Shown in pieces: positions 8,519 through 51,502 of a stretch of DNA of 64,000 bases; within the stretch, counting starts at the first letter, position 1; the number at the start of each line of letters is the position of its first letter. Source of the DNA: Conoideocrella luteorostrata (Eukaryota > Ascomycota > Sordariomycetes > Hypocreales > Clavicipitaceae). The stretch lies in contig JASWJB010000068.1 in assembly GCA_032433595.1 (NCBI GenBank), forward strand, positions 94,546 through 158,545, given 5' to 3'. The position numbers were made by a program, and so were the translations under genes. The notes below the pieces were generated by a model. That model made no database searches, had not been told where the DNA came from, and saw only the letters and a list, made by a program, of their open reading frames with translations.

Positions 8519-8775
8519 CGATGAGCCTATAGTGAAAGTAAAAGTGAAAGTGAGTACTATTAGTCTTGCCTTACTTTTTAGCTACGACAGCATTTTATAA
8601 TCGTTTCATGGTGGTTCGAGACTCACAATAACGTAGACTATCCATAAGCGGGGCTCGCCTAGAACTAACCAACCACGCTTCTGTATTTGTTCCCGCAGTA
8701 ACGTCGAAGTGGCCAATTAGAACCTAGCAATGGCGAGAGATTTTCCTGCTTTATCTTCCTTACCTGGACCCTACA

Positions 8776-25880: not shown

Positions 25881-28529
25881 CTACAGCGAGCATAAAAAGC
25901 CGCTGTCCTTCCAGTACTGAACATATTTGCACGCCAACTCTGCGCTGACGGGTCCTGTTTTCGCAAGTGTAGGGGAATGTTCTGTACTATGCGACGTTGA
26001 GAGCAAGAGTCCGCCGCACGACATCCGCTCAAAGTTATTCTCGAGAAAATCGACCAGCACCGACGCCGGGTTACCTGTGCCTAACCCCCCAGGCATGGCG
26101 CGTACACGTTCTAGCCAGTCTTTGAAAGGAATGATGCCGTCCGGCAGACTCACACCAAGAGCATTGGCAAGCACAGGCAGTAGATCGGACCATTGCTGAC
26201 GAACAGGATTGTCAATATTGTAAACGGGATATGGATCACCAGTCAGGATCAAATCTGCCAGTGTTCCAGCGACAATATCGACGGGTGTCCACGACAATAG
26301 GCCCTCGAGGCGTGGAATGCATTGGATTGTTTGCGTCGACTTCAGTAGGAACGGTAAATGCTCTTGTGGGTTCCAGTAACCGCCCCTGGTGGCGCCTGCA
26401 ATCTGACCTATACGCACGCAGCTCGTTGCAAAGCGATCGGCATGTTTGTGCAGAGTCTCGTCTAGAGCGCGCTCGCACGCGTATTTTGCCTCACCGTAGC
26501 CATTTGGCAAAACAGCTTCAATACCGACGCGGATTTCAGGGACATATGGTGTGTTGTACACGACAGGATAGTGGCCAACCACGGCTATAGATGAGATAAA
26601 CTGAAAATGAATTTTTCGAGACCCAATGACTCTGCTGGACGCATCCCATGCTAGCTTTATCACGTTGCGCATAATGTTGAACTGCGACTCGAAGCCGTGG
26701 ATTGGTCTCTTTGCAGACATCGCCCATGCCGAGTGGATAATATGCGTAGTGGCCGAGGCAACGTCATTGTAGACGTCAAGAGGCAGACCCAGGTTTGGTT
26801 TACAAATGTTAGTGTCGTAGACTCTTAACTTCTCCGCAGCGGTGGCGCTCAGGGCAATACCTCGCGATGAGAAAGCTTCAACCTGGCGCTTCATGGCATC
26901 CACGTCAGTACGACGATTCAGCACAATTACCCTGTTAATATTTGCACGCTCTGCTATGTCGGCCACGATGTGGGATCCCAAACTACCCGTGCCGCCAGTG
27001 ACCAGTACAGCTAGCTCTCCCGCGGGTGCATCACCAGTTGATGGAGGCGGAGTCTCCTGTTGCCACTCGCTTGACATTCCACTAACGTAATGGTCAATTA
27101 CGGCTTGGCGGGCGTCGTGATCTTGGATCGAGCTCACCGGTTGTTTCTCACATGAAACTCCAATCAAGAGTCTCTCTACTTTATTCTCTGGGAGCAATCC
27201 GTCCGTCCAGTCAACGAAGCCAAAGCCTGCCGTCTCCAGAGCTTGACGCCACTGCGTTTCGGAAGCAACAGCATGTTTGCGACCGTCCTCAAACAGCCAC
27301 CAACCTTCAAAAATACCAAATATCATGTCTACCCAGTAAAGCGTACCTGTCATCTCTAGCATCATCAAGATACCATTTGGCTGCAGCGCCTTGCGAATGT
27401 TCGCAGTGGACTTCGTCATGCTGCGAGTGGCGTGCACGGCGTTACTGGCAATGACTATATGCTGCGTGCCGAGCAGATCGGGTGCGGGCTCCTTTTCGAT
27501 GTCGTGCGTGCAGAAATTCATAAATGGGTACTCCTTGAACCGCTTGCGTGCTGAGGCTACAAATGAAGCAGCCAGGTCGGTAAACGTGTACTCAACCGGT
27601 TTGCCAAGGCTTGCCAGCAGCGAAACGAGCCACTTGGTCGTACCGCCAGTCCCTGCTCCCATCTCCAGTATCTTGAGTGGTTTTTCAGGTTCCAACGGCA
27701 GACTATTGATTAGAGTGGAGAGGAACGCCTCCATCTGCCGATAATAAGTGCGGTTGAGGGGCCAGTCGCCATAGACGCCGGAAACGAGATTGCGGCCCTT
27801 TTCGGACCCAAAGACCAGCTTGATACCGTCCGTCTTTCCTGTAAGGATGTCGCTCAGATGTGAACCAGCGTAATACGTCATATTGTTGGCGGTGGTCTCG
27901 TTCGGGGCTGTCTTTTGCAGATCCTCTAAAATTGCCTGACTCGATCTGATCGAATATGGTTTCTCGGTCCTGGTAATAAATCCATCTTCAACATTAACAA
28001 GCAATGACTCTCTTTCGAGCATCTGACTCAGATAAAGCACAAGCTGTTTGTGGGTAGCTACATATTCGAAAAGACGGATCTTCTCGCCTGTTTTAGCCCG
28101 TTTGATGGAACAGCCTAGCCGCTCGAACGCCTCTAGTGTGATTGCAACGCATAGCTCGTTTTGCTTGGGTAACACATCTAGAATATAGTTCGCACTTCCG
28201 CTCTCTGTAATAAATTTATCGGTCTGGATTTTGACAGCATTGAAGGCTTCTGTAATAGTTGCGAGTGAGAGCAGAAGCTGATTGTTTACTTGGGGTGAAG
28301 TAGCTGCGGTTGGAGAATGGGCTGGGATTCGAGAAGGAGCGCTAACGGCTGTTCGTTCCAAACAGCTGGTAGCGTCGTTAACAATCCTATCAAGCTCTGT
28401 TGCTGTCATACTCTCAATGCTGAGGTGTTGATCTAGTTCGGCTCCGAAATCAGACTCAAGGCCGGCGCGTATTTCCATGGCCATCAGTGAATTAACGCCA
28501 AAGTCGCCCAAGACAACTGTAGGAATCAT
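25881..28529 (-). CDS. 3' part of the NR-PKS: end of ACP2, C-methyltransferase, reductive release domain
   Basis: An 882-residue open frame. Its first ATG is formed by the terminal A of the LTR plus the TG of the target duplication, so it is accidental. It opens within ACP2 (DFGVNSLMAMEIR; phosphopantetheine Ser present, but the preceding residue is Asn where Asp is usual). The CMeT domain follows, with SAM motif LEMGAGTGGTTKW (about 27645-27669). Then comes an NAD(P)-dependent reductase domain with TGGTGSLGSH (about 26970-26998) and the Tyr-x3-Lys pair in YGEAKYACE (about 26480-26502). R domains release the thioester as an aldehyde. No stop or frameshift interrupts the frame, suggesting the insertion is recent relative to pseudogene decay. 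Confidence 0.9.
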   Translation of the reverse strand: MIPTVVLGDFGVNSLMAMEIRAGLESDFGAELDQHLSIESMTATELDRIVNDATSCLERTAVSAPSRIPAHSPTAATSPQVNNQLLLSLATITEAFNAVKIQTDKFITESGSANYILDVLPKQNELCVAITLEAFERLGCSIKRAKTGEKIRLFEYVATHKQLVLYLSQMLERESLLVNVEDGFITRTEKPYSIRSSQAILEDLQKTAPNETTANNMTYYAGSHLSDILTGKTDGIKLVFGSEKGRNLVSGVYGDWPLNRTYYRQMEAFLSTLINSLPLEPEKPLKILEMGAGTGGTTKWLVSLLASLGKPVEYTFTDLAASFVASARKRFKEYPFMNFCTHDIEKEPAPDLLGTQHIVIASNAVHATRSMTKSTANIRKALQPNGILMMLEMTGTLYWVDMIFGIFEGWWLFEDGRKHAVASETQWRQALETAGFGFVDWTDGLLPENKVERLLIGVSCEKQPVSSIQDHDARQAVIDHYVSGMSSEWQQETPPPSTGDAPAGELAVLVTGGTGSLGSHIVADIAERANINRVIVLNRRTDVDAMKRQVEAFSSRGIALSATAAEKLRVYDTNICKPNLGLPLDVYNDVASATTHIIHSAWAMSAKRPIHGFESQFNIMRNVIKLAWDASSRVIGSRKIHFQFISSIAVVGHYPVVYNTPYVPEIRVGIEAVLPNGYGEAKYACERALDETLHKHADRFATSCVRIGQIAGATRGGYWNPQEHLPFLLKSTQTIQCIPRLEGLLSWTPVDIVAGTLADLILTGDPYPVYNIDNPVRQQWSDLLPVLANALGVSLPDGIIPFKDWLERVRAMPGGLGTGNPASVLVDFLENNFERMSCGGLLLSTSHSTEHSPTLAKTGPVSAELACKYVQYWKDSGFLCSL
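28524..28528. repeat. Left target-site duplication AATCA
   Basis: AATCA immediately precedes the TGTCACA terminus of the outer element and is repeated exactly at 41765-41769 after its TGTGACA end. Confidence 0.95.
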
Positions 28530-28883
28530 GTCACAAGTGAGCAGCTATAGAAGTCGATCTCTAAGGCAGTGGAAAAAATATCCTTAATTTCTATCTAATT
28601 AACGGGAATTTAGCTACTATTTATCTCTACGATATCCCTCTTCTTGTGCATTTATTCTATTCTATTAATTCTAATAATATTGTTAATATTATCTATTTCT
28701 AGTAATATTAAATTCCTCGCGCGGGGTATATTCCTTAGCATTGTTTAATTTCAATAATATTAAATGCTTTTAGTTATATAATTCTATTAAATTTAAACGC
28801 TTCTAATAATATTAAATAATTCTAGTTATATTATATATTTTTAGTAATATTAAGTGTATTATTATAGAATACTTCCTATGATA
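28529..28883 (-). repeat. Left LTR of the copia element
   Basis: 355 bp. The outer (left) end keeps the unmutated TGTCACAAGTGAGC, while the inner end is mutated (TATGATA instead of TGTGACA). Polarity is opposite to the right LTR. Confidence 0.92.
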
Positions 28884-29921
28884 TACCCCTCTAGCTTAAA
28901 TATTCTATAATATCCTAAGCTAAATCTTCTAATTAATCCTGCTTTTTAATAAGGTTTATGATATTTATAAGGCTTAATTATTTAATAAATAATTTAAATC
29001 TCTAACCTAGGAGGGCTTTAGTTAATCTATTAGTTAAGTTATTAGTTAAATATATATATTTAATATTAAAGGTCCCTTCCTAATAGGCTTAATAAATCTA
29101 GCTACTATAAATATTAATATACTTTAGTGCTATCTTTATCCTAGGAAGGAGGCTATTAATAATCTATATTATTTAAAGGTTATTACATTAGATAATTAAA
29201 TTCTAGTTTAATTAAAGGTTTAATTGCTTAAATAGTTAAGTTATAGTAATAACCTCTTTTGCAGTGTGTGTAAATATAAGTAATTCTGCTTCTATTAATA
29301 ATGTTATAATAGTTACTTGCTTTGTTGTGTTCTAGCTAATTAAGCTATTAAATAATTAGATTACTAAGCCTTATAATAAGTAATAGGTTATCTAATTATT
29401 AGCGAACGTAGCATCTAACGTAATTTAAAGGTCTAGCTTACTAGATTCCTAACTTTTATTAAATTTAATTACTAGATATTGCATTATATATAGATATTTA
29501 ATAACTTAATTAGCTATCTTCTAATGTGTTTTTAATAGGTTATGTAGGAAGCTTACTAGCTTACTTGTTATAAATATAATATTAAGTTTACTAATAACCG
29601 CGATATAATTAATTAACCCTATAGTTTGCTAGTATTAATAGATTTAATTATCTGTGGCTTAACTTAGATTTAGCTATAGCTAGTTTCTAGGTATTAGATT
29701 TCCTTTAAAGGTCTAACTTCTAGGGATATTAAATATTATAGTTATCTTTTTAATATAAGAATCCTAATATAGCTATATTCTTTAGGTCTTTTAGTCTCTT
29801 ATAATTTAGATTCCTAGAAACTATTGTAATGTTCTAAGGTCTTGTATATTATATGTGTCCTTTAGGTTCTATATTAATTAATTAGTAAGGTTAAAATCTA
29901 ATAACCTATATATAATAATAA

Positions 29922-29977
29922 TATTGTTTACGTAGACAAATACTGTGATTTTATTATTATTAAAGACATAGGGGTCT
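29922..29977 (-). pseudogene. Copia reverse transcriptase remnant
   Basis: Minus-strand reading gives DPYVFNNNKITVFV followed by YVNNII. The context D-x-C-V-F...YVDD is diagnostic of Ty1/copia reverse transcriptase. The Asp-to-Asn pair and Cys-to-Tyr are G-to-A changes expected from RIP. Confidence 0.8.
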
Positions 29978-31798
29978 TTTAGGCAGGTTTATAGTCTTAG
30001 TTTTTTAAAGGTCTAACTTAGGTCTTGTTACTATAGCATAGAAGACCTTTGTAATTTATATAATGCTTGTAAAAGCTTTAATATTTAGCTAGATTATTAT
30101 ATTCTATCTAGGTATAATACGTAAACCTCTTTATTTAATAAGCTATTTATAAAGGCATTAACTATATTTAGCTGCCTAGTCTTTAGGTTAAATTTAGCCA
30201 CTATTGCTATTATTATATAGAAGGTCTTCCTAGCTAAGGTTACTATATATATATCTTTTTCTAATAATTCTTAAAGATCCCCTTTAATATATAACTAGGC
30301 CTTGAATTTTATTAGATATTTATGCTTATTAAATTTATATTTAAATACCTAGGTTAGTGGCAAAGCCCTCTAACTAGTATTATTATATTAGATAGATTAA
30401 AAGGTCCCTTATTAATAAAGGTTATTAAATTCCTTATGGGTAGCTTCCTTAAATTAATGCTTATATAGGTAGTTTACTAATTCCTTCTAATTCCTAGGTA
30501 AAAGGGGTAGTATATATTAGTGGGGTTATTCTATGCAGCCTAGTGCAAATACACTAAGGAATACTTACTTTTGTAAGGCTTTTTGCGTGGGTTAGCAGTA
30601 CCTTTCAGAGCGCTAAAGAGGCCTATCTCTAGTATTCTCCTCTAGCTCTAAGCTGCCTTGTATAGTGGTTCTAGGCGTTAATAATTTGTGATATTTAGGC
30701 CTATTATTAGATTCCGGACTTCCTAGATAAATTAAATCTAGGCCTATTATCTAACTAAATAACTAACTAGTATTATATGTGTTAACATAGATAGTAGACC
30801 TAATATTATTAAATTTATTGTCTTTGTCTTCTAATTCCTTAATATTTAGTAGCATTTATACCTACAGCGTTTAATTAATTTAATAATTTAATTAATAACC
30901 TAGATAGTAGGTATTTTCGTTAAAGGTTATATCCCTAACTTATCTAACCTTAGATTTTAAAGGAATCTATACGCGGAAGATATTTATAGAGTTATATTTA
31001 ACTAGATATCCTATTTTAGTGTGTAGGCTTATCTTAAGAGATTATTTTTATATGCCTTGTAATACCTCTAGGGTTATTAGATAGGCCTAGCATCTATAGG
31101 CTTATAGATGCTTAATATTTAGTCTTAAATCTAGATATCCTGTATCTTAGTTGTTTTCTATAAGCTAAGTCTATAGATTCCTAAAAGGCGTTTTCTAGCT
31201 TCTTCCTTATTAAGGAGACTTATTATAAAGGTATATAGCTATAGACTAAGTCTCTAGCTATAGGTTTTCTAGTAAATTAGCTACTATTTATATTATATAG
31301 GCTTTAGTCCCTATAATTCCTCCTGTATATTTAGTGGCTTTATTCTAGGCAGGCGTATAAGGTGTAGATAGCTTGTCTTTAATGCCTTATTAACTAAGCT
31401 ATAATATAAATAATAACTAAAGACCTTAGTTATTATTGCAATAAATCTTATAAATATCTAGCTAGTACTAATATTATACATAGGCTTAAAAATTCTATAA
31501 AGACTCTATAAGGGTATCTTACGTGGAATTCACATATAAATAAATATAGACTATACCTATAAATTAGTTAATAATTAAAAGGGTAGCCTTCTTATTGTTA
31601 TACAAGGTATTTAATTAAAATAAGTTAATTAATATCTTATAATATAGTCTTAGACTAGGTCCTAGAGGTAGTCTTCTAAATATCTATCTTTTAGCCTTAG
31701 CCACAGAATAATCTTTATAGTTAATTTACAAAAGTCCTTTAATCTAGCTTTTAGTAGTCTTTTCCACTAAATATTTAAGGGCATTTATGCTAAGATAA

Positions 31799-31803
31799 CC
31801 TAG
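31799..31803. repeat. Left target-site duplication CCTAG of the nested element
   Basis: CCTAG precedes TGTGACGG at 31804 and is repeated exactly at 39637-39641 after CGTAACA. Confidence 0.92.
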
Positions 31804-32215
31804 TGTGACGGCTGTGGTTGGTTCCCAAGGGATAAACCTAAGTCGTGGTTTATGTTGGCAGAGGTTATAGGGCGTCGTATATTCTTAAGCAAAGAGATAT
31901 TACATTACAATGGTTTAGGTAATTAATAGATATAGATAAACAATTGTAATAATTAAATAACTATTAAAGACTAACTATCTAAGATATCTAAAGAGCGTAA
32001 TTTAGTAGTGCTTATATAGTAGGTGGTTTACCTTTGGTTTACGGTAAACCTATAGTGACTTTTTATATAGCTCACTAATGGTTCACGGTGAACTTATAGT
32101 GAACCATACTCCTTAGATAGAATATCTCTAGTTCCGCCCGGTGGTCACGTGTGGCAATAGGGGTTTAGCGCCCTATAACTAGCCTTCTTGTAGCCTGCTA
32201 GCTAGGGTTATAACA
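31804..32215 (-). repeat. Left LTR of the nested gypsy element
   Basis: 412 bp. Its outer end, TGTGACGGCTGTGGTTGG, is unmutated, and its inner end (CTAGGGTTATAACA) carries transitions relative to the right copy. Confidence 0.9.
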
Positions 32216-32282
32216 TAATGTCCCCTCTCTAATGGTTTTATCCTTAAGACCTAATATTGTTTTATAAATAGGTTATTACCCA

Positions 32283-32552
32283 TTGGTTTTTATTTATAAG
32301 TTCCTTTCTTCTTTTATCTCCTTGAGATATATTGCTTACGCTATGCTTAACTACGTAGAGAAATCCCAAGCGAAATTAAAATCCGCTATTAATTATGCCG
32401 CTACTTCTGCCTTTATTCGCGAGCAAGGCTTTAAGATTCCCTTGTGTTCTTATTATAAAAAGAGAGGTTTTGCTTACATAGCTATAAAGGATATTAATTA
32501 CTATTCCTTGTGTTATTCTCTAGGTTATTCTTATAATAGTAACCCTATATAA
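32283..32552 (+). CDS. Antisense Cys/Tyr-rich ORF carried by the gypsy element
   Basis: An 89-residue open frame on the strand opposite to gag-pol, 68 bp inside the left LTR. The C-terminal third has a row of Cys and Tyr with regular spacing (CSYYKKRGFAYIAIKD, then SLCYSLGYSY). Several Tyr could be former Cys changed by TGY-to-TAY mutation, which would give a compact zinc-finger-like module. Downstream plus-strand sequence to about 32900 reads as a broken Glu/Gln/Arg-rich coiled coil. I recall similar Cys-knuckle hypothetical proteins as frequent in repeat-rich fungal genomes, but function is unknown. It is probably non-functional here. Confidence 0.5.
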   Translation: MVFIYKFLSSFISLRYIAYAMLNYVEKSQAKLKSAINYAATSAFIREQGFKIPLCSYYKKRGFAYIAIKDINYYSLCYSLGYSYNSNPI

Positions 32553-33339
32553 ATAGTAAATAGTATATGCTTATTTTTCCCCTTTGTTCTGCCTTAGCAC
32601 TAACCCCCTTCTCTTAGTTAGATATATTAATAAGGAGCTTCGTTAGCTTAATTACAAAGAAAAGCTTACTAAGAAGCTAATGTTATTACAACAGCGCGAA
32701 CAAGAGAAGCGTTGCCTAGAATAGGAGAAAATCCTTTAAAAAGCATAATAGGATACAGAGGAGGCTTTTAACTGCCTTTTGTGACTTTATTATATAAAAC
32801 ACTAATTATGTGATAAGGGTGTTATAATAGTACAATAGGAAATAAATTCCTTAGAGGAGTTAGAGGAAACAGAGAAACAGGAAGAAGAGGCCTATTAAGC
32901 TAAGCTTACTAAAGTGCAATAACAAGAGTCTAAAGCTATCTGCAATATGTAAAAGTGGGGAGGCGCTAGTGTCTTAGACTAAGAGTCTATTTTACAAGAC
33001 ATAAGTATAAAGGTCCCTAGTATATTGTTATAGTGCTTATCCTTAATTAAACTATTGTATTATAGCTTTATATTTTCCTAAATTTTAAATTAGTTCCTAT
33101 GTGTTTTCTTCTAATCTATATCCTTTCTACTTAATAAGGTATTATTATTGTTTCCCTTTTATTTATATGTCTATTATTTATTTTACCTTATATTTTATTT
33201 TATTTAAGACTTTAATATCTTCTTTAGCTATTACGTTTTTTAGTGCTAGTTCAAGGAGTAAAATATAGAATATTAGGTGTATTTATATTTTTATTAGTAA
33301 TAAGAGTTTATAGTTATTTTCTAAAATCTATTATTTTAC

Positions 33340-33386
33340 CTTAAAGGGTCCTAGTTTTTTATAATCTAATTTGTTGCTTAGTCGCG
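33340..33386 (-). pseudogene. Gypsy integrase C-terminal remnant
   Basis: Minus-strand RLSNKLDYKKLGPFKVK corresponds to the RPSKKLDxKxxGPFxV block that ends fungal Ty3/gypsy integrases. Neighbouring frames are full of stops. Confidence 0.75.
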
Positions 33387-35317
33387 TTGTTTTAATATTT
33401 TATTAGAGTAAATAAACTATATCCCCTCCTAAGAAAATTAGTCCCTTTAATCTTTTTTAATTATAGTATTTTTATATTCTAGTGTAAATAAATTTAAGTT
33501 CTATCCTTATTTCCTTGTAAAGTTTCTATATATTTTCTACATTAAGTATAGCTTTCTTAGTGTTTAGCCCTTATATAGGTGTTCTAAAGACTTCTAGATT
33601 ATATCTATAGTTTATATATACTAGTAATGTTTTCGTTAATTCTAAAACTACGCTATTATAAGCTAGTTAGGCTATTAGTAATTTCTTTACCTAATTGTTT
33701 TAATTATAATTAATGTAACATTAAAGGTACTATTCTAACGTTTAGTTTAATCTTTTGGTTTATTTATTAGTCTATAGGTAATATACTATGCTAAGCTTAT
33801 GTTTTATTCCTAATTATACTATTAGGGCTTGCTAGAAGTTAGAGGTAAATATAGTTTCTTTGTTTAAAACAATTTCTTCTAGTAATCTATAGTTGCTTAT
33901 AATTATTCGTAGGAACACATAAGCTAGTTCTTATGCATTGCTTGCTTCTTAGAATAGTAAGAAGTAGCTATACTTTATAAGTCTATTTATGACTATAAAT
34001 ATACTATTATATTCTGCGTTTATTAAGGGTTCTTTAGATAATAGTAATTTAGTAATGTGGTTAAATGCAATAGACTCCTAAGGCTTCTGTGGCACCTAAA
34101 GTGGTTATAAGTGTTTATATAGTTTATGCCTAGAGGCTTTGCTTTATGCGTATTCTATATATTCTCTAATTACTTTTTATATAACTTTCTTTAGTCTAGG
34201 GAAGTTATAGCTTTGTTGTATTTTATTTATTGTTTTTTGTATCCCTTAATGTCTTAAGACAGAATATATATATAAGACCTCCATGCATTCCTTTTGTAGT
34301 TCTAGTGGTATTTAGACTTTTCCTTTATATTGTGGTATATCTAATCACTCTATATCGTATTCTAGGGGTACTTCCTAAATGTGTTTAATATAATTCTTTG
34401 TTTATTATAGTACTAAATAATATACTAGGTTATTTGTTACTACTTTAAAGATTGTATTTAACTATTATTATTATAAATTGCTTTATGTGTTAAACTCAAG
34501 TAACTATTCTTTAACAACAGGTGTTCCTGTGTTATAGTTACTTTGTTAACTAAGAGCGTCTGCTTTACTATTTTCTAATCCCTTTTAATAAGTAATCTTA
34601 TAATTAAATTCTAAGAGATATTCTACCTATTAAATTTATTATCTATTTAACTATTATGTTATAGAAAAGTGTGTAATATTCTTATAATTTATATAGACTT
34701 TAACGCGGTGTTTTGTGCCTAATAAGTAGTATTAAAATTCCTTAAATAAGTTAATAATAGCGAGGAATTCTTTATTATAGATAGGGTAATTAAGTTCTGC
34801 TCTATGTAGCTTCTTTAAATAAAAGGCTATTAGATGTATCTTTCTATTATTATCTTTTTGCTTAATCTATGCGCCTAGCGTAAAGTTAGATACATTAGTT
34901 TCTAGTTTTACTAGTTTTTCTAGGTTAAATGTGATTAAAATAGGTTCTAAGAGTATTAACTTTTTAATGCTATTATAGGCTTTTTATGCTAAGTTACTCT
35001 ATTCCTATGTTTTGTCTTTCTTTATAAGTTTATATAATAGTGTTATAATTTTTCTAAAGTTCTTTATAAATTATTAGTAATAATTTACAAATCCTAGGAA
35101 ACTTTATACCTCTATAACATTTCTTAGTACTAGCTATTCTTTTATAGCTTTAATTTTTGTTTTCTTTATTCTAATTTTGTTAGGTTAAATAGTGTATCTA
35201 AAGAAATCCACTTCCTATGTGTAGAACTTGCTTTTCTCTAGTTTTACTAATAACTTTGCATTTTAGAGTGCTACTAGGACCTTATATATATATTCCTTGT
35301 GTTCTTTAAGATTCTTT

Positions 35318-35690
35318 AAGAAGATTAAGATATTATTAAGATATATAACTATAAAAATATTAAGGTACTTTCGTAGTATATTGTTAATTATTCTTTAGAA
35401 TATTATAAGTATATTTATAAGTCTAAATAGCATAACTAAGTATTTAAATAGTCTAAACTTTGTTCTAAAAGCTATTTTCTATTTATTACCTTTTTTTAAC
35501 TTAAATTAAGTTATAAGCTCCCTTAAGATCTAGAGCTATAAACTAATTTATTCTATGTAATTAATCTTGTAATTCTGCGATAAGTAATAAGGGTATTTAA
35601 TCTTTAATAGTAATATTATTAAGTTATTAGTAATCTATAATAAGTTATAACTTCCTATTTTTCTTTAGTATAAACATAATAGGGTATCTT
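35318..35690 (-). pseudogene. Gypsy reverse transcriptase remnant
   Basis: YPIMFILKKN (fingers, from a VLFVKKK-type block) at 35654-35690 and VIYLNNILIF at 35318-35352, the catalytic YxDD with both Asp replaced by Asn. The spacing of about 110 residues is normal for gypsy RT. Confidence 0.8.
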
Positions 35691-36477
35691 ACTTCTAAAG
35701 TTAATATTTATATATAGCCCTTAGCTAATATTTTATTAATATATTCTTGTAGTATCTCTAGTTACTTTCCGTTAAGACTATAGATTTTATTAAATATTAT
35801 TAATGTTCCTTCTTTTAGAATAATCTTATAATCCTATTTACTATGTTCTAGTAATCTAGTGTTAAGTTCTTCTTTAAACAGTTTTGTGTATTTCTAGTAT
35901 TCCTTAGGGATATTTTTTAATTATTCTTCCTTGGTTTTAAGACTTTCTTCTGTTTTTATAGGCTTTTCTATTGTATTATTAATATATATAAGGTCTTTCC
36001 TTAGAGTAGTAATAACTCTTTAGATCTTGTGATTCTTTAATTTTGTTTGTTTGTAATGTATTCTAGGTTATAATATAGTCTTTATTATTATAGATTTAGC
36101 TTTTACCTTATATATCTTGCTTGCTTCTATAGTAGCTAAGTTATAGTAAAATTTCGCTTCTTCTAAATTGTTCTAATGCTATTAGTTTACGCTATTATCC
36201 TAACGCAAATAGCTAGTCCTCTAGTTAATTAATAGGTTGCTCTCCCTTAGCTATAGATATCCTAGGACTATATTATGCTCTAATATATCTATAATATTAT
36301 AGGTAATAGTTTCAAAATGTCCTTAAATAACAAACGGTAGGTAAGGAGTCTCTATGTTAATTATCCTATTATTATAAGAAAACGCTTCTTCTTTAATATT
36401 ATAAAGTTAATAGGGTTTCTTTTTTGTGTTCTATAGTAGTTAGTAATAATTAATAACTCTAGGTAAGACATAGTTAC

Positions 36478-36507
36478 TTATTATGCTACTATCTATTAGT
36501 ACTTTCT
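36478..36507 (-). pseudogene. Gypsy aspartic protease remnant
   Basis: Minus-strand VLIDSSIISN matches the D-S/T-G-containing protease core (Gly now Ser, a G-to-A change). Its position between zinc knuckle and RT fits a gypsy pol. Confidence 0.65.
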
Positions 36508-38167
36508 TTACGCGATGTCCTAAGATCTTAGCTTCTAATACTAGCTTGTGTTGTGTTCTACTGTTGTTAGTTTCGCATAGAGTTATTAGTTTCTTTCTTG
36601 TTAAGCTAGTTTATAGCCTTTTTATAGATAGCGTACCTTGTTTTTTAAATCTAGAATAGTTTCTTTGTTAATTTGTTTTTTAATTTCCTTATGCTATTCT
36701 ATAGCGTTACTGTTTTCAATAGCTTGTTTAAAACTTATTTTTTGTTTATATAAATATATAAGTTATATATATATTTAGCGTTTTATTTCTATGTGCTAAT
36801 CGCAATAATAGTCTTTATAGTTTACTACATATTTCCACTAATAGTTTCGTATATTATGTTAGCACTATTTATTATAGTAATCCTTGTTTTATTGTTATGA
36901 TTTCTTAGCTTCCGCAGGGTTTTTATGTTTATATAGCTTAAAAGATTACCTTATATTTTAGTATACTTTAGGTGTACTAAATTGCTATTTATGCTATTCC
37001 CTTGCCTTATTTACTAGATATTCTAGGTATTATAGCAGGTTATATATATTATGATTAGTTATTCCGCAGGCTTCTGTTCCTAGTAACTATTTATATTATT
37101 AAGGGTTAATATTTTTCTCCTATTAATGCTATTTAATTACTTTCCCTAGTATATGTATTTAGCATATATCTATTTTATATAGCAGTATTAGTGCTTCTGT
37201 ATTTTAGTACTATAGTAGTGTACTTGCGTTAGGTTTAAGAATAGTGATATATTCCTTGTTTCTAAGTGTTATTCTTTATTCTCTAAGTTTATAGGCTAGG
37301 TATAGTTATGTGATTTTATAACCTACTATTTGTTTTAGGAAGATATCTAGTCTTGCCTTAGTATAAAAATGTGTTTTGTATCTAAAGTATACATATAATG
37401 CCTATAAGATATAATAATATTTATTATAGTGTAGGTGTATTTATAGATTATCCCTAAATTCTCCTAGTGGTTCCTATAATCCTATAGCTACTACTATAAA
37501 GTTATTGCTTAGGATTAAGATTACTATGTCTTTTCCTTGTGGTGTAGGTTAGTATTAAGTAAATATTTATTTTTAATTAAACGTAAGAGGTTTAGGTTTA
37601 ATCTGCGTGAGAATGTTTTAGTATTATGTATTATAATATTCTATGTTATATTGTGAGGTAGTTTATTTATTTTTATTGCTTTCTTTATATAATAATGTTT
37701 TATAGTCTTGGTTAAACTTATTATCACTACTACTGCCTTTGGGTGTGTCTTGATCTTAATCTATAGTGTTAAACAAGCTAGTGTTGTTAACACTTAGTGC
37801 CCTTTTTTCTTGTAGTTATATGAGAAGTTATGTAGCTTCTTCTTCTTATTATTAAAGGTTATCTTCTATTGCTTATTGTGCTTTATTTATTCCTGCTTAG
37901 ATTTCTTGGTAGGTTTTTTGCCTAATTTATTATAGTTTAATTCCTTGTCCTCCCTTTAGTAGGGGAATCCTGCTAGTTATAGCTAAAGTTTTCTTAGGCT
38001 ATTTTAGAAACTATCTACTACCTTATTTTTCGCTAAGGTACATAATATAGTTATTATTATAACATCCGGTCTAGTTAAGGTTTTAATGTTTAATATCTAT
38101 GTTAGTATTATTAAGTTATTTCTTACTGTCTAGAGCTAGTTTCTATTCCTTTTTGGGTTATTTATAT

Positions 38168-38213
38168 TCCCTAGAGAAATATCCCTTTTTCCCATAATTA
38201 TAGCACTTTACCT
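38168..38213 (-). pseudogene. Gypsy gag zinc-knuckle remnant
   Basis: CYNYGKKGYFSREYK corresponds to CCHC (C-x2-C-x4-H-x4-C) with Cys and His changed to Tyr by transition mutations. Confidence 0.7.
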
Positions 38214-39224
38214 TTTCTTTGTTAAACTTCTTTGTAGCGTCTAGGTTTATTTATCCTGGGTTAGTAGTATATATGTATATAATAGGCTCTTGTTGTTATT
38301 TGCCTTAATTACTAAGGTTTCTTTGTATATTATTATGCTAATTCTTATTACCTTAATTCTTTTCTTAGCGTTACTTATACTATTTGTCGTTAATATATAC
38401 TATAATGCCTATATAGTTAGCAAGGGTATTTAGTTAGTTTAATTTATAGAGTTTATCCTTAACTTCTTCTTTAAGTCCTTTATAATATATAGACATAAGG
38501 TAGGCTTATTCCTATAGAAGTTTAGATATAATCTATAAGAATATTACAGAATATTTAGATACTAATTCTTTTTAACGTAAGTTCTGTAATTTACTTTCTG
38601 CCTTTTATTCTTTATCTATAGTTCTAAACGTCTAATAGATAGAGTTCTTAAATTCCTAATAAGATAAAAAGATATAAACTATGTTTAGTTTATAGGTTCC
38701 TAAAAAAGAGTTTTCTATGTAATTACGTAATATAGGTTTAAACTAAGAGAGTGCTAGTCTAGTGAGTCTACCTGCGGTATACTACACCCTAGATGCCTTA
38801 TTCTTAAATTATATTAAGAAATACATAAAGTAGGCCTAAAGCTAGGTAAGGAATAATTATAAGGTACTTATAATACTGTTAAATAATCCTAGTAATATAG
38901 GCTTTAATACTTCTCCTAGATCCTTGCCCTTTATAGTAGTGGTAGTAAGTCTGTTAAGTTTATTAATTTAGCCCTAGTATATATTAGCTTATTCTTGTAT
39001 ACACTAAGCTATTTCGCCTATGTATTATTTAGCTTATTTAATTTAACTTTAAAGAAGTTAAATCATATTATTGCGTTTATTATTAGAGTTAATATCTATA
39101 GTATCTTAAGGATCCTTCTCCTTTCCTTTAGAGCTTAATTTATACTTAGAGTTAGGAGCTATATTAATAGTATAAGGTATTACTTAGAGTAACGTAGTGT
39201 AAGTCTAAACAAGAGTCTTTAATA

Positions 39225-39636
39225 TATAATAGCTATAGTTAGTTCCTAAGGGATAAACCTAAGTTATAGTTTATGTTAGCAAAGGTTATAGGGCATTATA
39301 TATTCTTAAGCAAAGAGATATTATATTACAATGGTTTAGGTAATTAATAGATGCAGATAAATAATTATAATAATTAAATAACTATTAAAGACTAACTATC
39401 TAAGATATTTAAAGAGCGTAATTTAGTGGTGCCTATATAGTAAGTGGTTTACCTTTAGTTCACGGTGAACCTGTAGTGACTTTTTATACAGCTCACTAAT
39501 AGTTCACAGTGAACTCGTAGTGAACTATACTCCTTAGATAGAATATCTCTAGTTCCGCCCGGTGGTCACGTGTGGCAATGGGGGTTTGGCGCCCCATGAC
39601 CGGCCTTCTTGCAGCCCGCTAGCCAGGGTCGTAACA
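39225..39636 (-). repeat. Right LTR of the nested gypsy element
   Basis: 412 bp, ending GTAACA before CCTAG. Here the left, inner end is mutated (TATAATAGCTATAG) and the right, outer end is intact (GGCGCCCCATGACCGG), mirroring the left LTR. Confidence 0.9.
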
Positions 39637-41409
39637 CCTAGTTATTAGTGCCAGATTTCTAACTCTAATATTTAATCTAACTTCTGTTTTCTTAAAGATT
39701 AAAAGCATTTAGCTTAAATACCTTTAATTTAGTTAGGTTAAATATTATTAATTTAGTTAGGTTACTGCTTAATAGGTTAATTAGTCTAACTAATAGGATT
39801 AAATTTAATTACTAGTTAACTATAGATTTAGGTTATATAGAAGATAACTTCCTTGCCTTTAGTTATATTACTAGTATTTAGATTCTAATTAAATTCCTTC
39901 TTAATAAATATATTTAAGGACGCTATATTTATGTGGAAAGAAGGGATATAAGCTACTCTTTATAGCAGGAAAACCCCTTCTTAAATTTATAGATATATTT
40001 AACTATATCCATGGATTTTAATTTATTAATTTCTAGTGTAAATTATCTTAATTGCTTAATTTAGCTTATATTCCTTAAGGCATTAAATATTATTATAAAT
40101 ATATAAATTAGTATATAAGTTAAGAAGGAAGGAATCCTATAATAAATATATTTAATAACTTCCTTCCTAACTAGCTTACTAACTATCTTCCTAACTAGTT
40201 AACTAACTAGGATTTTAATGTGTATAGAATCTAGTAAATATAACGCCTTTTATATTCTTCTTATCTTTATTTTCTAGCTTTTGTTCTAGCTTATTAAATT
40301 TTTTCATAATTTTTTTATAGTAATCCTTTATATTTAGGTCCTTTAGCTTCTCTTTAATACTAGCTTAGATAGCCTAGTTTAGCTACTAATTAGCTAGTCT
40401 CTTCTGCTTAACTAAATACTAGTAATCCTAGTACTAGTGTAGTTAGCTATATAGGCACTTTAGTAGCTACCTATAGCTTATATTAGTGGATAACAAATTT
40501 AACGAATTTAATGCCTAACTAGGATATTAACCTTGTTAACTAGTATCCTTGCCTTAGAAGGTTACTAAAAATACTCCTCTAGTAGCTTCTTAAGTTTTTT
40601 AACTTTAGAAGTGCTACTTATAAAGCTTACTTATCTTCTAACTATTAGGAATCTTATCCTACTATTTAGGCTTATTGCTAATTAACTTATCGCGAATCTA
40701 GTTATTTTAATAGTTTAAAAATAATAGCAATACAGTAGCTATAAATATAAGGAAATTTAGTGTTAGCCTAATTCCTTAAACATTAAGGAGCTTAATATTT
40801 AAGGCTTTTTAATAAACCTTATGCTAGCTTATAAGCTAGGTTTAAATCTTTGTATAATTTAGTGCCTTTAAGACCTACTTATATCTTGTGAGAACCTCTT
40901 ATTACTAGTTATAAGATATAAGCTTAAATTAATTTCTTAGTAATTTTAACTAATAAGTAAGGCTAACCTTAAGTGTAATAATATTATAGAAGTTACTAAT
41001 TATACTTATAATATGCTTCTAAAGGCTTGCAATAGCTTTTTAATAACAAAGGTATTCCTATAAATATAATTAGTATAGTAAATTTATGTATTTAAGCCTC
41101 TTAAATTAGTTAGTATCTAGGTTTATAATGCCTGTGGCATTAGGGTTAATATCTTAAGGACTTAGCTTAATAGGCTAAATGAATTCTAGAAGATTATCTG
41201 CTTTAGGGTTTAAATACTTCTAGATACTCTCTATAATAGTAATCTTTTAAATAATTAATATTTACTATTCTTAGTTACTAGTCCCTTAAAGATAAGCATA
41301 GGAAGAAGGACCCTTAGAGGTATTTATAATAGCTTTATATAGTATTATAATAATAGTGTAATTATAATAGTAAAATAGTAAGAATACTTATGTAAACTAG
41401 GCTTATAAC

Positions 41410-41764
41410 TATTATAAGTAAGTAGCTATAGAAGTTAATCTCTAAGGTAGTAGAAAAAATATCCTTAATTTCTATCTAATTAACGGGAATTTAGCTGCTA
41501 TTTATTTCTATAATATCCCTCTTTTTATGTATTTATTTTATTTTATTAATTCTAACAATATTGTTAATATTGTTTATTTCTAGTGATATTAAATTCCTCG
41601 CGCGGGGCGTATTCCTTGGTATTGTTTAATTTTAATAATATTAAATACTTCTAGTTGTATGATTCTGTTGAATTTAAACGCTTCTGACGATGTTAAATAA
41701 TTCTGGTCGCATTGTGTGTTTTCGGTGATATTGAGTGCATCGTTGTGGAATGCTTCCTGTGACA
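41410..41764 (-). repeat. Right LTR of the copia element
   Basis: 355 bp. Its left (inner) end is mutated (TATTATAAGTAAG) and its right (outer) about 120 bp is nearly unmutated, ending CTTCCTGTGACA. It supplies the last 23 codons and stop of the truncated PKS frame. Confidence 0.92.
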
Positions 41765-44700
41765 AATCAGCTCGTGGCGTTTAATGCCAATCAGTTCTGC
41801 CAGGACTCCAACAATATCGACCTTGGAACTAATAGCAGCTGAAACTATTGCAGGATCTTCGATCGAAGTAGTGCTCTTGATAGGCGTTTTAGGGGATACA
41901 CTACCGGAGTCAAGTGTGGAGTCGAAGTCACTTTCCTCTCCAATTTCATCTTCCCCGTCAATGGCTCTTATTTCACCAGCTTCAATAGTCTTGCGAGTAC
42001 ACTCGACAAGACTCTTCACGTCGATGACTTCAGCGGCTTCATCTAGAGAGAATTTGCAGTTGAACTTGTTTTCCAGCTCCGTGACAAGCTCCATACCCAT
42101 CAAAGAGTCTATGCCTAGGTCGGCGAGGTTGCTCTCCAGTGTGATATGATCTTCGTCAATGCCTGACAGCTCAGATATGATGGCTGTGAGCTTGGGTAGA
42201 ATGTCATTTTGAATCGTTCGCGGTGGCCTTGAGCATTTCATCTCTTGCAGCTTGGACTTTTTGGTTGGAGAATTTGAAGTAGCCTGAATTACAGGCACTG
42301 TGGTCTGTGGATCATTCACAAAGATGGCACGCTCGCTGACCGCTTCTTTAGGTGGCACTGGTTGTATGGTGGAACTGTTGGTGAGGCGATTCAAAAGCTT
42401 TTTGATGGACTCCTTGTGTACTTGGACATAATTAATACCAAGAATGGCCTCCACCAGAGCGCCGGTGTCAGGATTAAAGACGAAGATGTCGCTTAGAAAA
42501 CCACCGCTAGCCGTTGAGCCATTGTGATAGGCGAGGATGTCATAACGCTGTGGACGATCATGTAAGATTTTCTTAGACCTCATCCAGCGCTCTAGACCGC
42601 GGGATATGTAAATATCGACCGAGGGCCTGTCCGTCATGCAATTAACAAAAATGCCACCAACCTGGCAAAACGTGTCTGACAAATGTGCGTCGAACCATGT
42701 CTCGTTGTTGTAACTCTTTACGACATGACCAGCAGAGATGTTACCTTTGCCAACCAGCTTAACAAGTCCACGGTATTGGTCGCCATAATCCACGACCTCT
42801 GCGAAGGTTTTGTAAATATTGCGTCCCTGTATGGCATCATCGGGGTCTAGTGAATTCAACAGCTCTAAGCAGTGGTCGTGGCTGATGATGCGCTGATATC
42901 TTGACAAATCTAGTTCAGTTGAAAGATCTTTTGTTGAAGGAATAATGCGACCTGTGGTGTGGGTTGCAGTCGAACGTCGGGAGGCTGGGCCGCTTGTGCT
43001 TATTAACTTGAACAGCCACTCTCCCACTCGAGCTTCGGAGGCAACTAGGTCAAGCGACAACGATAAAGAAGAGTCAACACAAATCGGTGCGAGGTTTTCG
43101 AGGCCATAGATCTCTGGATTGAAGTCGGCGCCAAGTGACACGAGCTGCGACAAGGCATCGATGGCAAGGTCAATCTGCACTGTCGCCGGGCAGATGGGAG
43201 CAGTGTGCGCAATTTTGTGGCCGATCATGAGATTCTCAAATTTCGGGATCATGGTATTGACACGGAAGCGAGTATGGCGCTTAATGGTTCCGTCCTGGTA
43301 TCCGACGAAAGTCAACAACGAGGCAGGAATCTTTTCCGGTTCGGATGTCACTGATGGCTTTTCCACAGCTTCTAAAGGCGGCCCCTCTTTGAGTTCAATC
43401 CAGTGCTTCGATTTCGCGAATTGGTAAGGCGGAAGGAGTTGAACAGAATATTGAGAAGTTTGCAGACTCGAGTGCTCCCAATAAGTCACATCTATACCGG
43501 CTTTCCATAAGTTGACTGTCGCATCTGCCAAATTATCGCAGGCTGAATCGCTGGTAATATTGACAGGTACAAAGCTGTTTCTCTGCGGCGCTCCCAAGGC
43601 TCTGCTGACCATGGCGGTTACCGTTGAGTTGGATCCAGCCTCGAGCCAGACGCATTCGGGATATCTCTTGGCGAGCCTCTGCACGCAATGCTGGAAGTAG
43701 ACGGGCTGGCGCATGTGTTCACCGAAGAATTCCGCAGAAATCTCAGGCTCAGACTCGGTTTCAGTACAGCGAGCCCACTCCATTATTGGCCGTTCAAATG
43801 TCAAGTCAAGTGCAGATTCTTTCAGAGGAACCAGAAGGGGCTCCACCAGTGTCGAATGAAAGGCGTTTGTAACGGCCAGCTTCTTCGATTTGACGGGGAA
43901 GGACGTATCGCTGGAGAGAATATTAGCTACAGCCTCAATAGCGACCGAGGATCCAGCCAGTGTAAAACTGTGCGGGCCGTTGAAGCAAGCAATAACCGCA
44001 GGGTCTCGATCCTTGTCAAGTGTGGCGTTTGACAGCTCGATAAGACGCTCGACATCCTTCAAATTGGCTTCGACAGCCATCATGGCGCCTTTGTCGGCAC
44101 CCCACTGGTCGCGAATGATTCGGCCACGAGCAGCGATCATGGTGAGAGCTTGCGGCAGTGACAATACGCCGGCAATACATAAGGCGGTCAGCTCACCAAA
44201 GCTATGACCCAATACGGCGACAGGCTGAACACCGCTATCAATCCAGCATTTTGCACATGAGTATTGGAGGGCAAAAAGGGCAACTTGCAACCGAACAGCA
44301 TCGTTGATTGGTTCACGCTGGAAGATATGAGGGAAAATGCTTGTAATACCCAGCGAGCGGCAGACATTGTTGCATTCGTCAAGGTACTTCCTGAGAATAC
44401 GTACGGACTCATAGAGCTGACGATGAAGGCCGACAAATTTGGATATCTGTCCCCCAAAGCAGAGGATGACAGACTGGCTGCAATCAGTGTTCTTGTCAGC
44501 GAGCTGGAGAGGGCTACCCTTCTTCGCTGCGGTTTCTAGCTTTTCTTCCAGCTCACTTAGAGAGTGGGCAGTAAAGACCACACGACGAGGGAGAGTGCGA
44601 TTCGACTGACGCGCGAGGTTGAAGGACAAATCTGCGATTGAATTGGACTTGTGCTTTCGCACAAAGCGAAGGAGAGCTCCTGCGTACGCGCCGAGACTCT

Positions 44701-47293
44701 CGTCATCCAGGCCGCAAATCCAGAATGGTCGCTTCACTATGCCATCTCCAGAGGCCGCCTGCTGCTGCAGGTCATGACAACTTGGCGGCGCTTCAACGAC
44801 AATCATTGAAGCATTGGAACCAGAGGCACCATAATTGTTGATTAAGGCCGCTCGGAAACCATTATTCCAAGACGTCACGCTTGCTGGGATGGTGATGCGG
44901 TCTGACGGCTCAGCTTTGATGGCAGGGTTGAGAGTCTTGAAGCTTGCCTGGGGCGGTATAGCTCCATTCTTGATCATCAACACGGTTTTGACAAGAGAGA
45001 TGATACCTGATGTGCATTCCAAGTGACCAATCAAACCTTTGACCGAGCTCAACATTAACTGCGACGTGCGTTTGGTGGCATCTCCGCCTAGAATTCGCCG
45101 TATACTATCGTACTCGGCAGGGTCACCGACGGCAGTGCCCGTGCCATGGGCTTCCACTACGCCAATTTGCTCAGGGCGAAGATGAGCCTTTCGGATGACT
45201 GTTCTGAATAGATCCGTCAACGAAGGAGCGTTGGGGACGATAATCGGCGTACAGTTTTCGTTTTGTTGCACTGCGGTACTTGCGATCACACCCAAGACCT
45301 GGTCGCCATCTGCAATTGCCGAGCTCAGTTTTTTTAGAAAAACCGTAGCACATCCTTCGCCGCGACAGTATCCATCAGCCAAAGCATCAAAGGGCTTACA
45401 TTGCCCCGTTTTGCTCAGGAAAGAAGCTCCAGCGAGGTTCTGGTAGCACAGGGGACTTGTCATAACATGTGTACCGCCAGCAATAGCTGCATTGCATTCA
45501 CCATTCAAAATTGCCCGACAAGCAAGATGTACTGATACAACGGAAGAAGAGCAGGCTGAATCAATCGTTAGACCGGGACCAGTCCAACCGAAGAAGTGGC
45601 TGATCTTGCCGGCAATAAATCCTCTCAGAGTTCCCGTCGCTGAAAAGGCATTGGATGGGTGACAAGCAACGTTATTCTCATAGTCGACCGCGCACACACC
45701 GATATAGCAGCCGACATTCTTGTCCGGGCGTGACCTGCGGAAGTAGCCTGATTGCTCAACCGCTTGGTATGCAAGTTGCAGGACCTGACGCTGCTGCGGA
45801 TCCATTGAAGCCACTTTCCGCGGCGTCTTCTTGAAGAACTTGTGGTCAAATGCGTCATGGTGATTAATGAAGTTACCGAACCATTTCCTTTGGCCGTCCG
45901 CCTCGCGATACGCTGACTTGAAGGTGAATCTGTCCGCCGGAACTTCTCGGTGCTTCGAGTTGCCCTCGCATAAAATCTGCCAAAATTCTTCCAGGTCGTC
46001 GGCACCTGCGACCTTGCATGACATACCCACGATGGCAATGTCAGTGTCTGTATACAACCTGGAGCTCATCGCGGCATCTACCCCGCCTGTTTGACGTTCT
46101 AATTCAGCCATATTCACTAGCTGTGGAGTCAACGTCCTCGACAAGGACGGCGGCACGTATCGGTCCAAGCCGAAGCTAATGAGCAGTGACTTACTGTCCT
46201 GCAGCGTCTTTTCCTGAATACGGGACATTGTCTGAAACCATAGAGGCGGTTCTAGTAAGATCGATTGGATAATTTCGCGATGTAGAGGACCATTAAAATC
46301 CTTGCCTGAATTTGAATGGGTGGGTAGAATTAAGTGATCGCTGTCCAGAAACTGAAATTCCGCATGGGCATCCGCAAAGACAACAGCTCTTTCGGCGTTT
46401 TCTTCATGTCCCGGCCAGTGAAAACGTCCATGAAGGCCAACTTCGGTAGCCGTCACACCAATTGTCTTGAGCTGTTGGCGCAGTGCCGCGGCATATTTTG
46501 TCGGCAGTGTCAAAGTCGCCCTAGTCTCGTCATAAAAGACGGAAATATATGTCTGACGTGGTTATTAGTAAATGAATTTGAATTTTCGTGTTAGTAGTAG
46601 CGGCACAAATGAAAAAGGAGGGCTAACCTCTGGAAAACTTTTAAGCATCTCACACATTTGCTCTTGGGCTTCATGTGAATGCCACGCCGTGGCCAACGAA
46701 ATGGCCCGATCTTCCTGTTCTGAAAAGTTTTGCGCATCGACAATCAATCCACAAAGCATTGCAATCCGAATCGATGTAGCTCCATACTTTGCAAAACTCT
46801 CCTCATCTCTCGAGCAAGAAACTGCAGACGCACTCAACAAACCAGTGCAAAATCCAGCGGTCTGAGTCGAATATCGGGGTAGAGCGAGCGCTTGATTCAA
46901 ATCTAATGTCGGATATGCAATCTTCAAGTACGCTACGTACTGCATCAGCTGGTTAATGACAGTCAATGGTGTAAGGATGATATTGGAGGATTTGAACGAT
47001 GCTCTCGGCCCGCTCCCAGTCTTAAACCATACGTTCAGATCGACGAGTAGCTTCTCAGCAGTCTCATGGAACGCATTGGAGACATGTTTCAGCTTTGTGA
47101 TCCAATCGGGTAGGCCTGCTAGAGTCTGAAGAATCCACAAATATTCGTCTGAACTCAACACAGAGCACCGAATAGATTCCAGCACGTTATCGGCGGGGCA
47201 AAGCGCCTGCGACCCATATATCAGGACCGAGTTGGCTTGGCGAGCACGGGCTAAACGGTCAACCATGTTGAAGAATTGACCAATGACGCTCAA
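41693..47293 (-). CDS. 5' part of the NR-PKS: SAT-KS-AT-PT-ACP1 and start of ACP2
   Basis: SAT domain with GFCTGL (nucleophile Cys) near residue 147. KS with active Cys in DSACSSS (codon 45551-45553), VEAHGTGT and GLIGHLE histidines. AT with GHSFG near 44200. Product-template domain with catalytic His in HKIAHTAPICP (about 43190-43230) and Asp in DAHLSDTF (about 42670). ACP1 with LGIDSLMGMEL (42091-42119). All catalytic residues I looked for are present. After 41765 the frame runs 23 codons into the LTR and stops, so the present-day product would be truncated and lack C-methylation and release domains. It is divergent from the flavin monooxygenase gene at 47870. Confidence 0.9.
41765..41769. 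repeat. Right target-site duplication AATCA
   Basis: Exact repeat of 28524-28528. On the coding strand it lies within the Leu-Ile codons of ACP2 helix I. Confidence 0.95.
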
Positions 47294-47869
47294 AAATCGT
47301 ACCAGGCTATTAGATAAAGTAGATATAGACGACTTCTAGCTATTCGTGTAAAGTGAAGAACACTCTTTAATCAGAGTCGTTGAATAAGGCAACAGATCTG
47401 TCGTTGTCATCATATTTATCCTCCGCATGCTCCTCATGCTTGCTTATCTGTAAGACAGTTCGAAGACTATAGATTCGTTGATGTCAGACTGGCTAGCGTG
47501 TTAGGTTTGTGCTTGAGGGAGTCGAATTGTAAAGGTCGTACTGCAAGCTTGTCGGGCTCGGGGCTACTCTGTCCCCCTCGGACCAACTTCATCGTCTAAG
47601 CCTCAAATCTGACATAAGAGGCTACCGGGCTTGCAATAGTTTTCTAAACTAAGATATCTACAAAACGCGTCGGGATCAATTTTGTTCCCCAATCATCCGA
47701 GCAGCCGTGATAGTTTCAACCATATCGACACGGGAGTCGGCACACCAGCGACCTAGGACAAAAACGGACATCATATTCACGCTTGAGGATAAAATCTAGG
47801 CCATACATTCCTAACTTCTGACGTGAATTACGGCGGTGGCGTCAGCTATTCTATCATACTTTTGAAATT
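47294..47869. promoter_or_regulatory. Bidirectional promoter between the PKS and the TropB-like gene
   Basis: A 576-bp region separates two divergently read biosynthetic genes. Several CGG triplets cluster at 47551-47583 (GTCGGGCTCGGGG, then CCCTCGGACC), the half-site type bound by Zn2Cys6 dimers. No TATA box is obvious. Joint control by the regulator at 22803 is inferred. Confidence 0.4.
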
Positions 47870-50997: not shown

Positions 50998-51502
50998 GAT
51001 ACCGTCACTAAGTCTTGAGGATACAACGGTCGAACTTTGGAGATGTGGTAGTGCTTGATCACTAGATAATAAACTCAGATGCGCTCTGTTGTGTGAATAG
51101 ACTTGGACAGATCTTCCAGCTCATTACATTTTCTTATAATCCACAGAACCTAGAACTGTGTAAAGCTATCGGGTTTTTAGTAGCACAGTGGCGTTAGGGT
51201 CGGCTTACCTTACATTTTGCTTGCAGCAACTCATTGTGACATTGCAACCTATAGCCGGAGCTGAGATTCCCCGGGGACTTACATGCCCATCAACGTATGT
51301 TTGTTGCTAATAAGTGAGAGGTGATTGCTCGAGTATACTAACTTGTCATGGATCCACACATGTCTACTTTAATTCACCAACCATATTGACGTGGAGTGCT
51401 TATCCTACAAATCTGAGTGCAGTACTATACAGGGACATGGCGCTCCATGACAGGTTTTGGATTCCAATTTTCAAGCTACCGACCTAAGATGTGACTGAGA
51501 AA
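50998..51502. other. Spacer and dioxygenase promoter
   Basis: About 500 bp, no gene. It contains the upstream region of the dioxygenase and the 3' flank of the SDR. Confidence 0.45.

What the first reader, a model, noticed from the sequence alone, without database searches (positions are those of the whole stretch)
25881..47293. Intact-frame NR-PKS cut inside its second ACP by a 13.2-kb retroelement
The LTR ends and AATCA duplications are exact. Both PKS parts are open, carry every catalytic motif checked, and the coding lengths on each side are multiples of three. The element therefore entered a functional synthase, and no other lesion has accumulated. The cluster may be silenced by a single insertion in this strain while sister strains still make the compound.
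Basis: seen in the sequence. Interest (0 to 1): 0.9.

Follow-up and report, generated by a model that had tools for sequence, protein, structure and literature searches.

The report
Tropolone-type synthase cut by nested retrotransposons
In one sequenced strain of an insect-killing fungus, a gene that probably starts the making of a tropolone-type compound is cut in two by one jumping element that carries a second one inside it; both elements are full of the fungus's own repeat-silencing mutations, while the split gene beside them is almost untouched.

Summary
The insertion is real. In Conoideocrella luteorostrata a SAT-KS-AT-PT-ACP-ACP-CMeT-R non-reducing PKS is cut inside ACP2; each half, aligned apart to an intact homologue, stops at adjacent residues. 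The "13.2-kb retroelement" is two elements: a Ty1/copia element (28529-41764, AATCA duplication) carrying a Ty3/gypsy chromodomain-type element (31804-39636, CCTAG duplication). LTR pairs differ by transitions alone, mostly in RIP (repeat-induced point mutation) context. RIP fades toward the copia edges and nearly stops at the gene. "No other lesion" is doubtful: the residue before the ACP2 serine is Asn here, Asp in 48 of 48 homologues. No second copy of either half was found. An empty-site allele, producing sister strains and loss of product are untested. Best view: a fairly young natural knockout, known in kind.

The parts
46628..47266 (-). PKS exon 1, SAT domain (213 codons)
   Evidence: PF16073 in ORF 46565-47335; matches residues 1-213 of P0125
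41765..46557 (-). PKS exon 2 up to the insertion: KS about 44939-46045, AT 43592-44458, PT 42389-43276, ACP1 42002-42193, first part of ACP2
25881..28528 (-). PKS after the insertion: rest of ACP2, CMeT (about 27222-28238), thioester reductase (about 25893-27014)
28524..28528 (.). target-site duplication AATCA, left copy
41765..41769 (.). target-site duplication AATCA, right copy
28529..41764 (-). outer Ty1/copia element (13236 bp with the inner element, 5398 bp without it and its duplication)
   Evidence: LTR ends; RVT_2 on the minus strand
28529..28883 (-). outer LTR, left (3' LTR of the element)
41410..41764 (-). outer LTR, right (5' LTR of the element)
31799..31803 (.). target-site duplication CCTAG of the inner element, left copy
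39637..39641 (.). target-site duplication CCTAG of the inner element, right copy
31804..39636 (-). inner Ty3/gypsy element, chromodomain type (7833 bp); LTRs 31804-32215 and 39225-39636
   Evidence: RVT_1, RNase H, H2C2, SH3_Tf2-1, Chromo, gag on the minus strand, some under cut-off
47822..49289 (+). TropB-like FAD monooxygenase (two ORFs)
   Evidence: 173.2 and 359.8 bits to TropB
49960..51120 (-). TropC/SpoC-like 2-oxoglutarate dioxygenase (two ORFs)
   Evidence: 256.0 and 173 bits to SpoC; NCBI QQS21_004584
51503..52375 (-). short-chain dehydrogenase
   Evidence: PF00106
23627..24199 (+). fungal transcription factor domain; may belong to the cluster
   Evidence: PF04082

Best explanation
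A tropolone-type cluster of Conoideocrella luteorostrata has probably lost its starter synthase by insertion. Shown: a Ty1/copia element lies in the ACP2 coding region of an otherwise continuous NR-PKS, in the gene's own orientation, with a 5-bp duplication; a chromodomain-type Ty3/gypsy element lies in the copia body with its own 5-bp duplication; the LTRs of both carry C-to-T (G-to-A) changes of RIP type, and in the copia LTRs their density falls toward the gene. Inferred: copia came first and was at least partly RIPped before the gypsy element landed; the N-terminal protein ends at a stop in the LTR and the methyltransferase-reductase half is cut off from it; so the aromatic aldehyde that the neighbouring TropB- and TropC-like enzymes would use is not made. 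If RIP works here as in Neurospora, at least one sexual cycle followed the insertion.
For: Halves end at adjacent residues of one intact homologue; exact duplications and LTR ends; copia and gypsy domains; LTR differences 56 of 355 and 42 of 405, all transitions, no gaps, 50 of 56 and 40 of 47 in CpA/TpG context (the 47 are over 413 positions, one past the inner LTR); gradient against six unmutated solo LTRs; normal composition of the PKS flanks; no second copy of either half; TropB- and TropC/SpoC-like neighbours; PKS and dioxygenase homologues on contigs of equal length in 7 other sources, 6 with matching organism names.
Against: No expression or metabolite data. The genome paper says that the core PKS and NRPS genes were checked for frame shifts and premature stops (PMC12352038). 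The published assembly is short-read only. The product class rests on neighbours, not on chemistry. The order copia-RIP-gypsy is weakly supported: the nearest 100 bp of copia are slightly less RIPped than its body.
Confidence: 0.85

Rival explanations
1. The PKS had already lost function before the insertion, and the element landed in a dying gene.
For: Asn before the ACP2 serine where 48 of 48 homologues have Asp; Lys at a KS position that is Glu in 114 of 114 others; the C half is on the high side for changes at conserved columns (rank 83 of 109).
Against: Frames open; the N half is ordinary (rank 43 of 115); two homologues, P0126 and P0127, also have one such unique change each in the N half. 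The ACP2 change is about 35 bp from the insert and of a kind that RIP leakage could give, so it may be later than the insertion.
Confidence: 0.08
2. Assembly chimera: PKS pieces were joined through repeat DNA.
For: The published assembly is Illumina 2 x 150 with SPAdes, and both LTR families have about 40 scored places in this genome.
Against: Exact duplications on both nested elements, adjacent end points in one homologue, no other copy of either half, mirror-image RIP gradients in the two outer LTRs, no N in the window.
Confidence: 0.04
3. The split gene still works as two proteins: the junction of LTR and duplication forms an in-frame ATG for the C half, and the sense-oriented LTR drives it.
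For: The database's own prediction for the C half starts at that Met, 882 aa (P0004); ACP1 stays whole on the N half; element and gene share orientation.
Against: About two thirds of the C/G positions on the inner, promoter side of that LTR are changed in RIP direction (that U3 lies there is recalled); ACP2 is cut and its motif altered. No expression data.
Confidence: 0.03

Closest known systems
Fungal tropolone clusters (TropA-B-C of Talaromyces stipitatus; dba/troA of Aspergillus nidulans; sepedonin-type clusters of Hypoxylaceae)
   Same: CMeT-R NR-PKS with a TropB-like monooxygenase and a TropC-like dioxygenase next to it (PMC10512232 and PMC8403587, passages)
   Different: The PKS is interrupted; the TropD-type enzyme was not looked for by name and no P450 domain appeared among the 28 ORFs scanned
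Transposon-damaged secondary-metabolite genes of fungi (Cladosporium fulvum; ACE1 of Magnaporthe, the latter recalled)
   Same: Mobile DNA breaking a core biosynthetic gene or cluster
   Different: Here a nest of two superfamilies with intact target duplications in one domain; in C. fulvum mostly rearranged clusters and pseudogenes (PMC3895014, passages)
RIP leakage next to repeats (Leptosphaeria maculans AvrLm1-AvrLm6 region; Neurospora)
   Same: C-to-T changes at CpA/TpG in repeats, graded with distance
   Different: Leakage of at least 930 bp is cited for Neurospora (PMC2973834, passages); here RIP already falls inside the outer LTR and the flanking gene shows no excess

Membership tests
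NR-PKS of the CMeT-R type | SAT, KS, AT, PT, ACP, CMeT, reductase in this order | tested here: met
   spread over three ORFs
NR-PKS of the CMeT-R type | tandem ACP | tested here: met
   two ACP sites in the closest homologue P0125; two motifs in 46 of 114 homologues
Fungal tropolone cluster | TropB-like monooxygenase | tested here: met
   TropB first, ahead of AfoD and SorC
Fungal tropolone cluster | TropC-like ring-expansion dioxygenase | tested here: met
   SpoC and TropC first
Fungal tropolone cluster | makes a tropolone | not testable with these tools
   no chemistry; no paper holds both Conoideocrella and tropolone
Ty1/copia | RVT_2 reverse transcriptase between LTRs with 5-bp duplication | tested here: met
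   48.8 bits, cut-off 31.6
Ty1/copia | integrase part before the reverse transcriptase | tested here: inconclusive
   SH3_retrovirus before RVT_2 but under its cut-off
Ty3/gypsy chromovirus type | RVT_1, RNase H, integrase in this order | tested here: met
   RVT_1, both RNase H models and H2C2 over cut-off
Ty3/gypsy chromovirus type | chromodomain at the integrase end | tested here: inconclusive
   Chromo 21.4 bits, cut-off 25.1
RIP | C-to-T changes in repeats, mainly at CpA/TpG | tested here: met
RIP | RID-type DNA methyltransferase present | tested here: inconclusive
   PF00145 matches on two contigs, C327 and C34, not identified further

The most novel reading that the evidence does not exclude
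The insertion turned one synthase into a two-protein system: the LTR end and the target duplication form an in-frame ATG, the sense-oriented LTR drives the methyltransferase-reductase half, and ACP1 on the N half hands the chain over in trans.
Probability: 0.03. Interest if true: 0.75.

Novelty: new member of a known kind. Interest (0 to 1): 0.3.

Why it matters
A fungus described for its biosynthetic and biocontrol potential carries a tropolone-type cluster whose core gene is broken in the sequenced strain, which a cluster count would not show. It is also a convenient natural case for asking how RIP stops at a gene: unmutated solo LTRs in the same genome let the fade be measured position by position, and in five other LTRs that belong to mutated longer copies the outer 90 bp are spared in 5 of 5.

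Tried and rejected
Single 13.2-kb element: rejected. General RIP leakage into the PKS: not supported; RIP-context residue changes within 90 bp are 1 of 24 on the C side and 0 of 15 on the N side, against 20 of 1790 further away, counted where P0125 and P0127 agree. General decay of the PKS: not supported for the N half, undecided for the C half. Plus-strand frames of the copia body gave no Pfam match; the inner element was scanned on the minus strand only. A dN/dS test was not possible: no DNA of a close relative was fetched, and the nearest proteins are about 74% identical. No structure was predicted. In one search two rows bore the same label and one (outer LTR 100-200) was lost; it is not used.

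Papers: PMC12352038, part 1 of 2 of the text; PMC10512232, PMC8403587, PMC2973834 and PMC3895014, passages only; all others only as listings. The ACE1 case is recalled.

Full report
What is there. The window is contig C68:94546-158545 of a genome of 46.4 Mb in 620 contigs. Its PKS N half matches QQS21_004582 of Conoideocrella luteorostrata, an annotated 1832-aa 'polyketide synthase'. I infer that this is the assembly of strain ARSEF 14590 (PMC12352038; 864 scaffolds, 47.39 Mb), though the figures differ somewhat. On the minus strand lies a non-reducing PKS with the order SAT-KS-AT-PT-ACP-ACP-CMeT-R. It is cut inside ACP2. Aligned separately to the intact 2688-aa Monosporascus homologue P0125, the N-terminal side ends at residue 1804 (73.7% identity) and the C-terminal side starts at residue 1803 (74.4%), so no sequence seems lost at the cut. 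Next-best places in the genome are 48% and 49% identical, so no second allele or close paralogue was found.

The insert is a nest. The outer element, 28529-41764, has 355-bp LTRs, ends TGTCAC...GTGACA and an exact AATCA duplication. Its minus strand matches RVT_2, so it is Ty1/copia. Inside it, 31804-39636, lies an element with 412-bp LTRs and an exact CCTAG duplication. Its minus strand matches RVT_1, two RNase H models and the H2C2 integrase zinc finger over cut-off, and SH3_Tf2-1, Chromo, zf-H2C2 and gag under cut-off, in Ty3/gypsy order. Without the inner element and one duplication the outer one is 5398 bp; a copia copy on C201 is about 5.39 kb long and has GACGA on both sides.

RIP. The outer LTRs differ at 56 of 355 positions and the inner ones at 42 of 405 compared; all are transitions, without gaps. 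In CpA/TpG context are 50 of 56, and 40 of 47 over a 413-position comparison that runs one base past the inner LTR. Of the 38 matches listed outside the window (a lower bound, 40 of 124 candidates were scored) I fetched 20. Ten are solo LTRs with exact 5-bp duplications and no sign of RIP; six have element sequence next to them; four could not be classed. Against six of the solo LTRs, RIP-direction changes per 71-bp bin in the left window LTR rise from 3-5 at the gene edge to 19-23 inside, and in the right one fall from 11-16 to 2-3 at the gene edge. Of the six LTRs beside element sequence one, L037, shows no RIP; in the other five the outer 90 bp are unmutated in 5 of 5, and the inner 90 bp are mutated in 4 of 5, L032 being nearly clean. 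The PKS flanks have normal composition. The gypsy edges are lightly RIPped beside strongly RIPped copia sequence, which fits copia being RIPped first; but the nearest 100 bp of copia are slightly less RIPped than its body, so this order is a weak inference. That chromodomain integrases favour silent chromatin is recalled.

Other lesions. The residue before the ACP2 serine is Asn; it is Asp in 48 of 48 homologues with residues at all nine motif columns and in 66 of 66 others at that column. It lies about 35 bp from the insert and could be a RIP-type change, but one such change among 24 sites is no excess. In the KS a residue that is Glu in 114 of 114 others is Lys; P0126 and P0127 also carry one unique change each in that half. 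Over conserved columns the N half ranks 43 of 115 and the C half 83 of 109, counted from the fewest changes. So the gene is not plainly decayed, but 'no other lesion' is too strong. With no transversion or indel in 760 compared LTR positions, open frames are expected and do not show that the gene was in use.

The cluster. Beside the PKS lie an FAD monooxygenase closest to TropB (359.8 and 173.2 bits for its two ORFs; AfoD 216.1 and 66.5, SorC 194.6 and 80.8) and a dioxygenase closest to SpoC and TropC (256.0 and 251.8, then 173 and 161.5). With a CMeT-R PKS these are the published marks of fungal tropolone clusters (PMC8403587 and PMC10512232, passages). PKS and dioxygenase homologues lie on contigs of equal listed length in 7 other sources, 6 with matching organism names (one search shows the best 120 of 7749), which suggests linkage; in Monosporascus MC13-8B the listed contigs differ. 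A short-chain dehydrogenase, a multicopper oxidase, a hydrolase-like and an MFS gene and a transcription-factor domain lie around. No paper held has both Conoideocrella and tropolone.

Mechanism and rivals. Most likely the pathway is blocked at its first step: the N-half protein ends in the LTR and lacks methyltransferase and reductase, and the C half has lost the gene's promoter. A two-protein rescue is possible in principle, since the junction makes an in-frame ATG and the element has the gene's orientation, but the inner side of that LTR is heavily mutated. A chimera is unlikely for the reasons given under the rivals. The genome paper states that the core PKS and NRPS genes were checked for frame shifts and premature stops; this locus does not fit that if it was among the counted clusters, which I cannot tell.

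Verdict. A well-preserved natural knockout by nested, RIPped retrotransposons in a tropolone-type cluster: known in kind, with a useful view of RIP stopping at a gene edge.

Noticed in passing
L040-L046, L048-L050: Ten solo LTRs of the copia family with exact 5-bp duplications and no RIP, while most longer copies looked at are mutated; this fits a length threshold for RIP.
   Followed up: partly
PMC12352038, Table 1 footnote d: The genome paper states that the core NRPS and PKS genes were manually confirmed free of frame shifts or premature stops, which this PKS would not pass if counted.
   Followed up: partly
14594-14821: A 126-bp unit repeated 1.8 times in tandem, 91% alike.
   Followed up: no
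8728-9507: An ORF with an Ada zinc-binding domain and an AraC-type helix-turn-helix, as in bacterial Ada proteins.
   Followed up: no
P0126 (Amphichorda felina homologue): A PKS 72% identical in the N half whose predicted protein shows only one ACP motif, so the second ACP may be absent or mispredicted there.
   Followed up: no
55927-57171: A multicopper-oxidase ORF near the cluster, not reported for the tropolone clusters in the passages I read.
   Followed up: no
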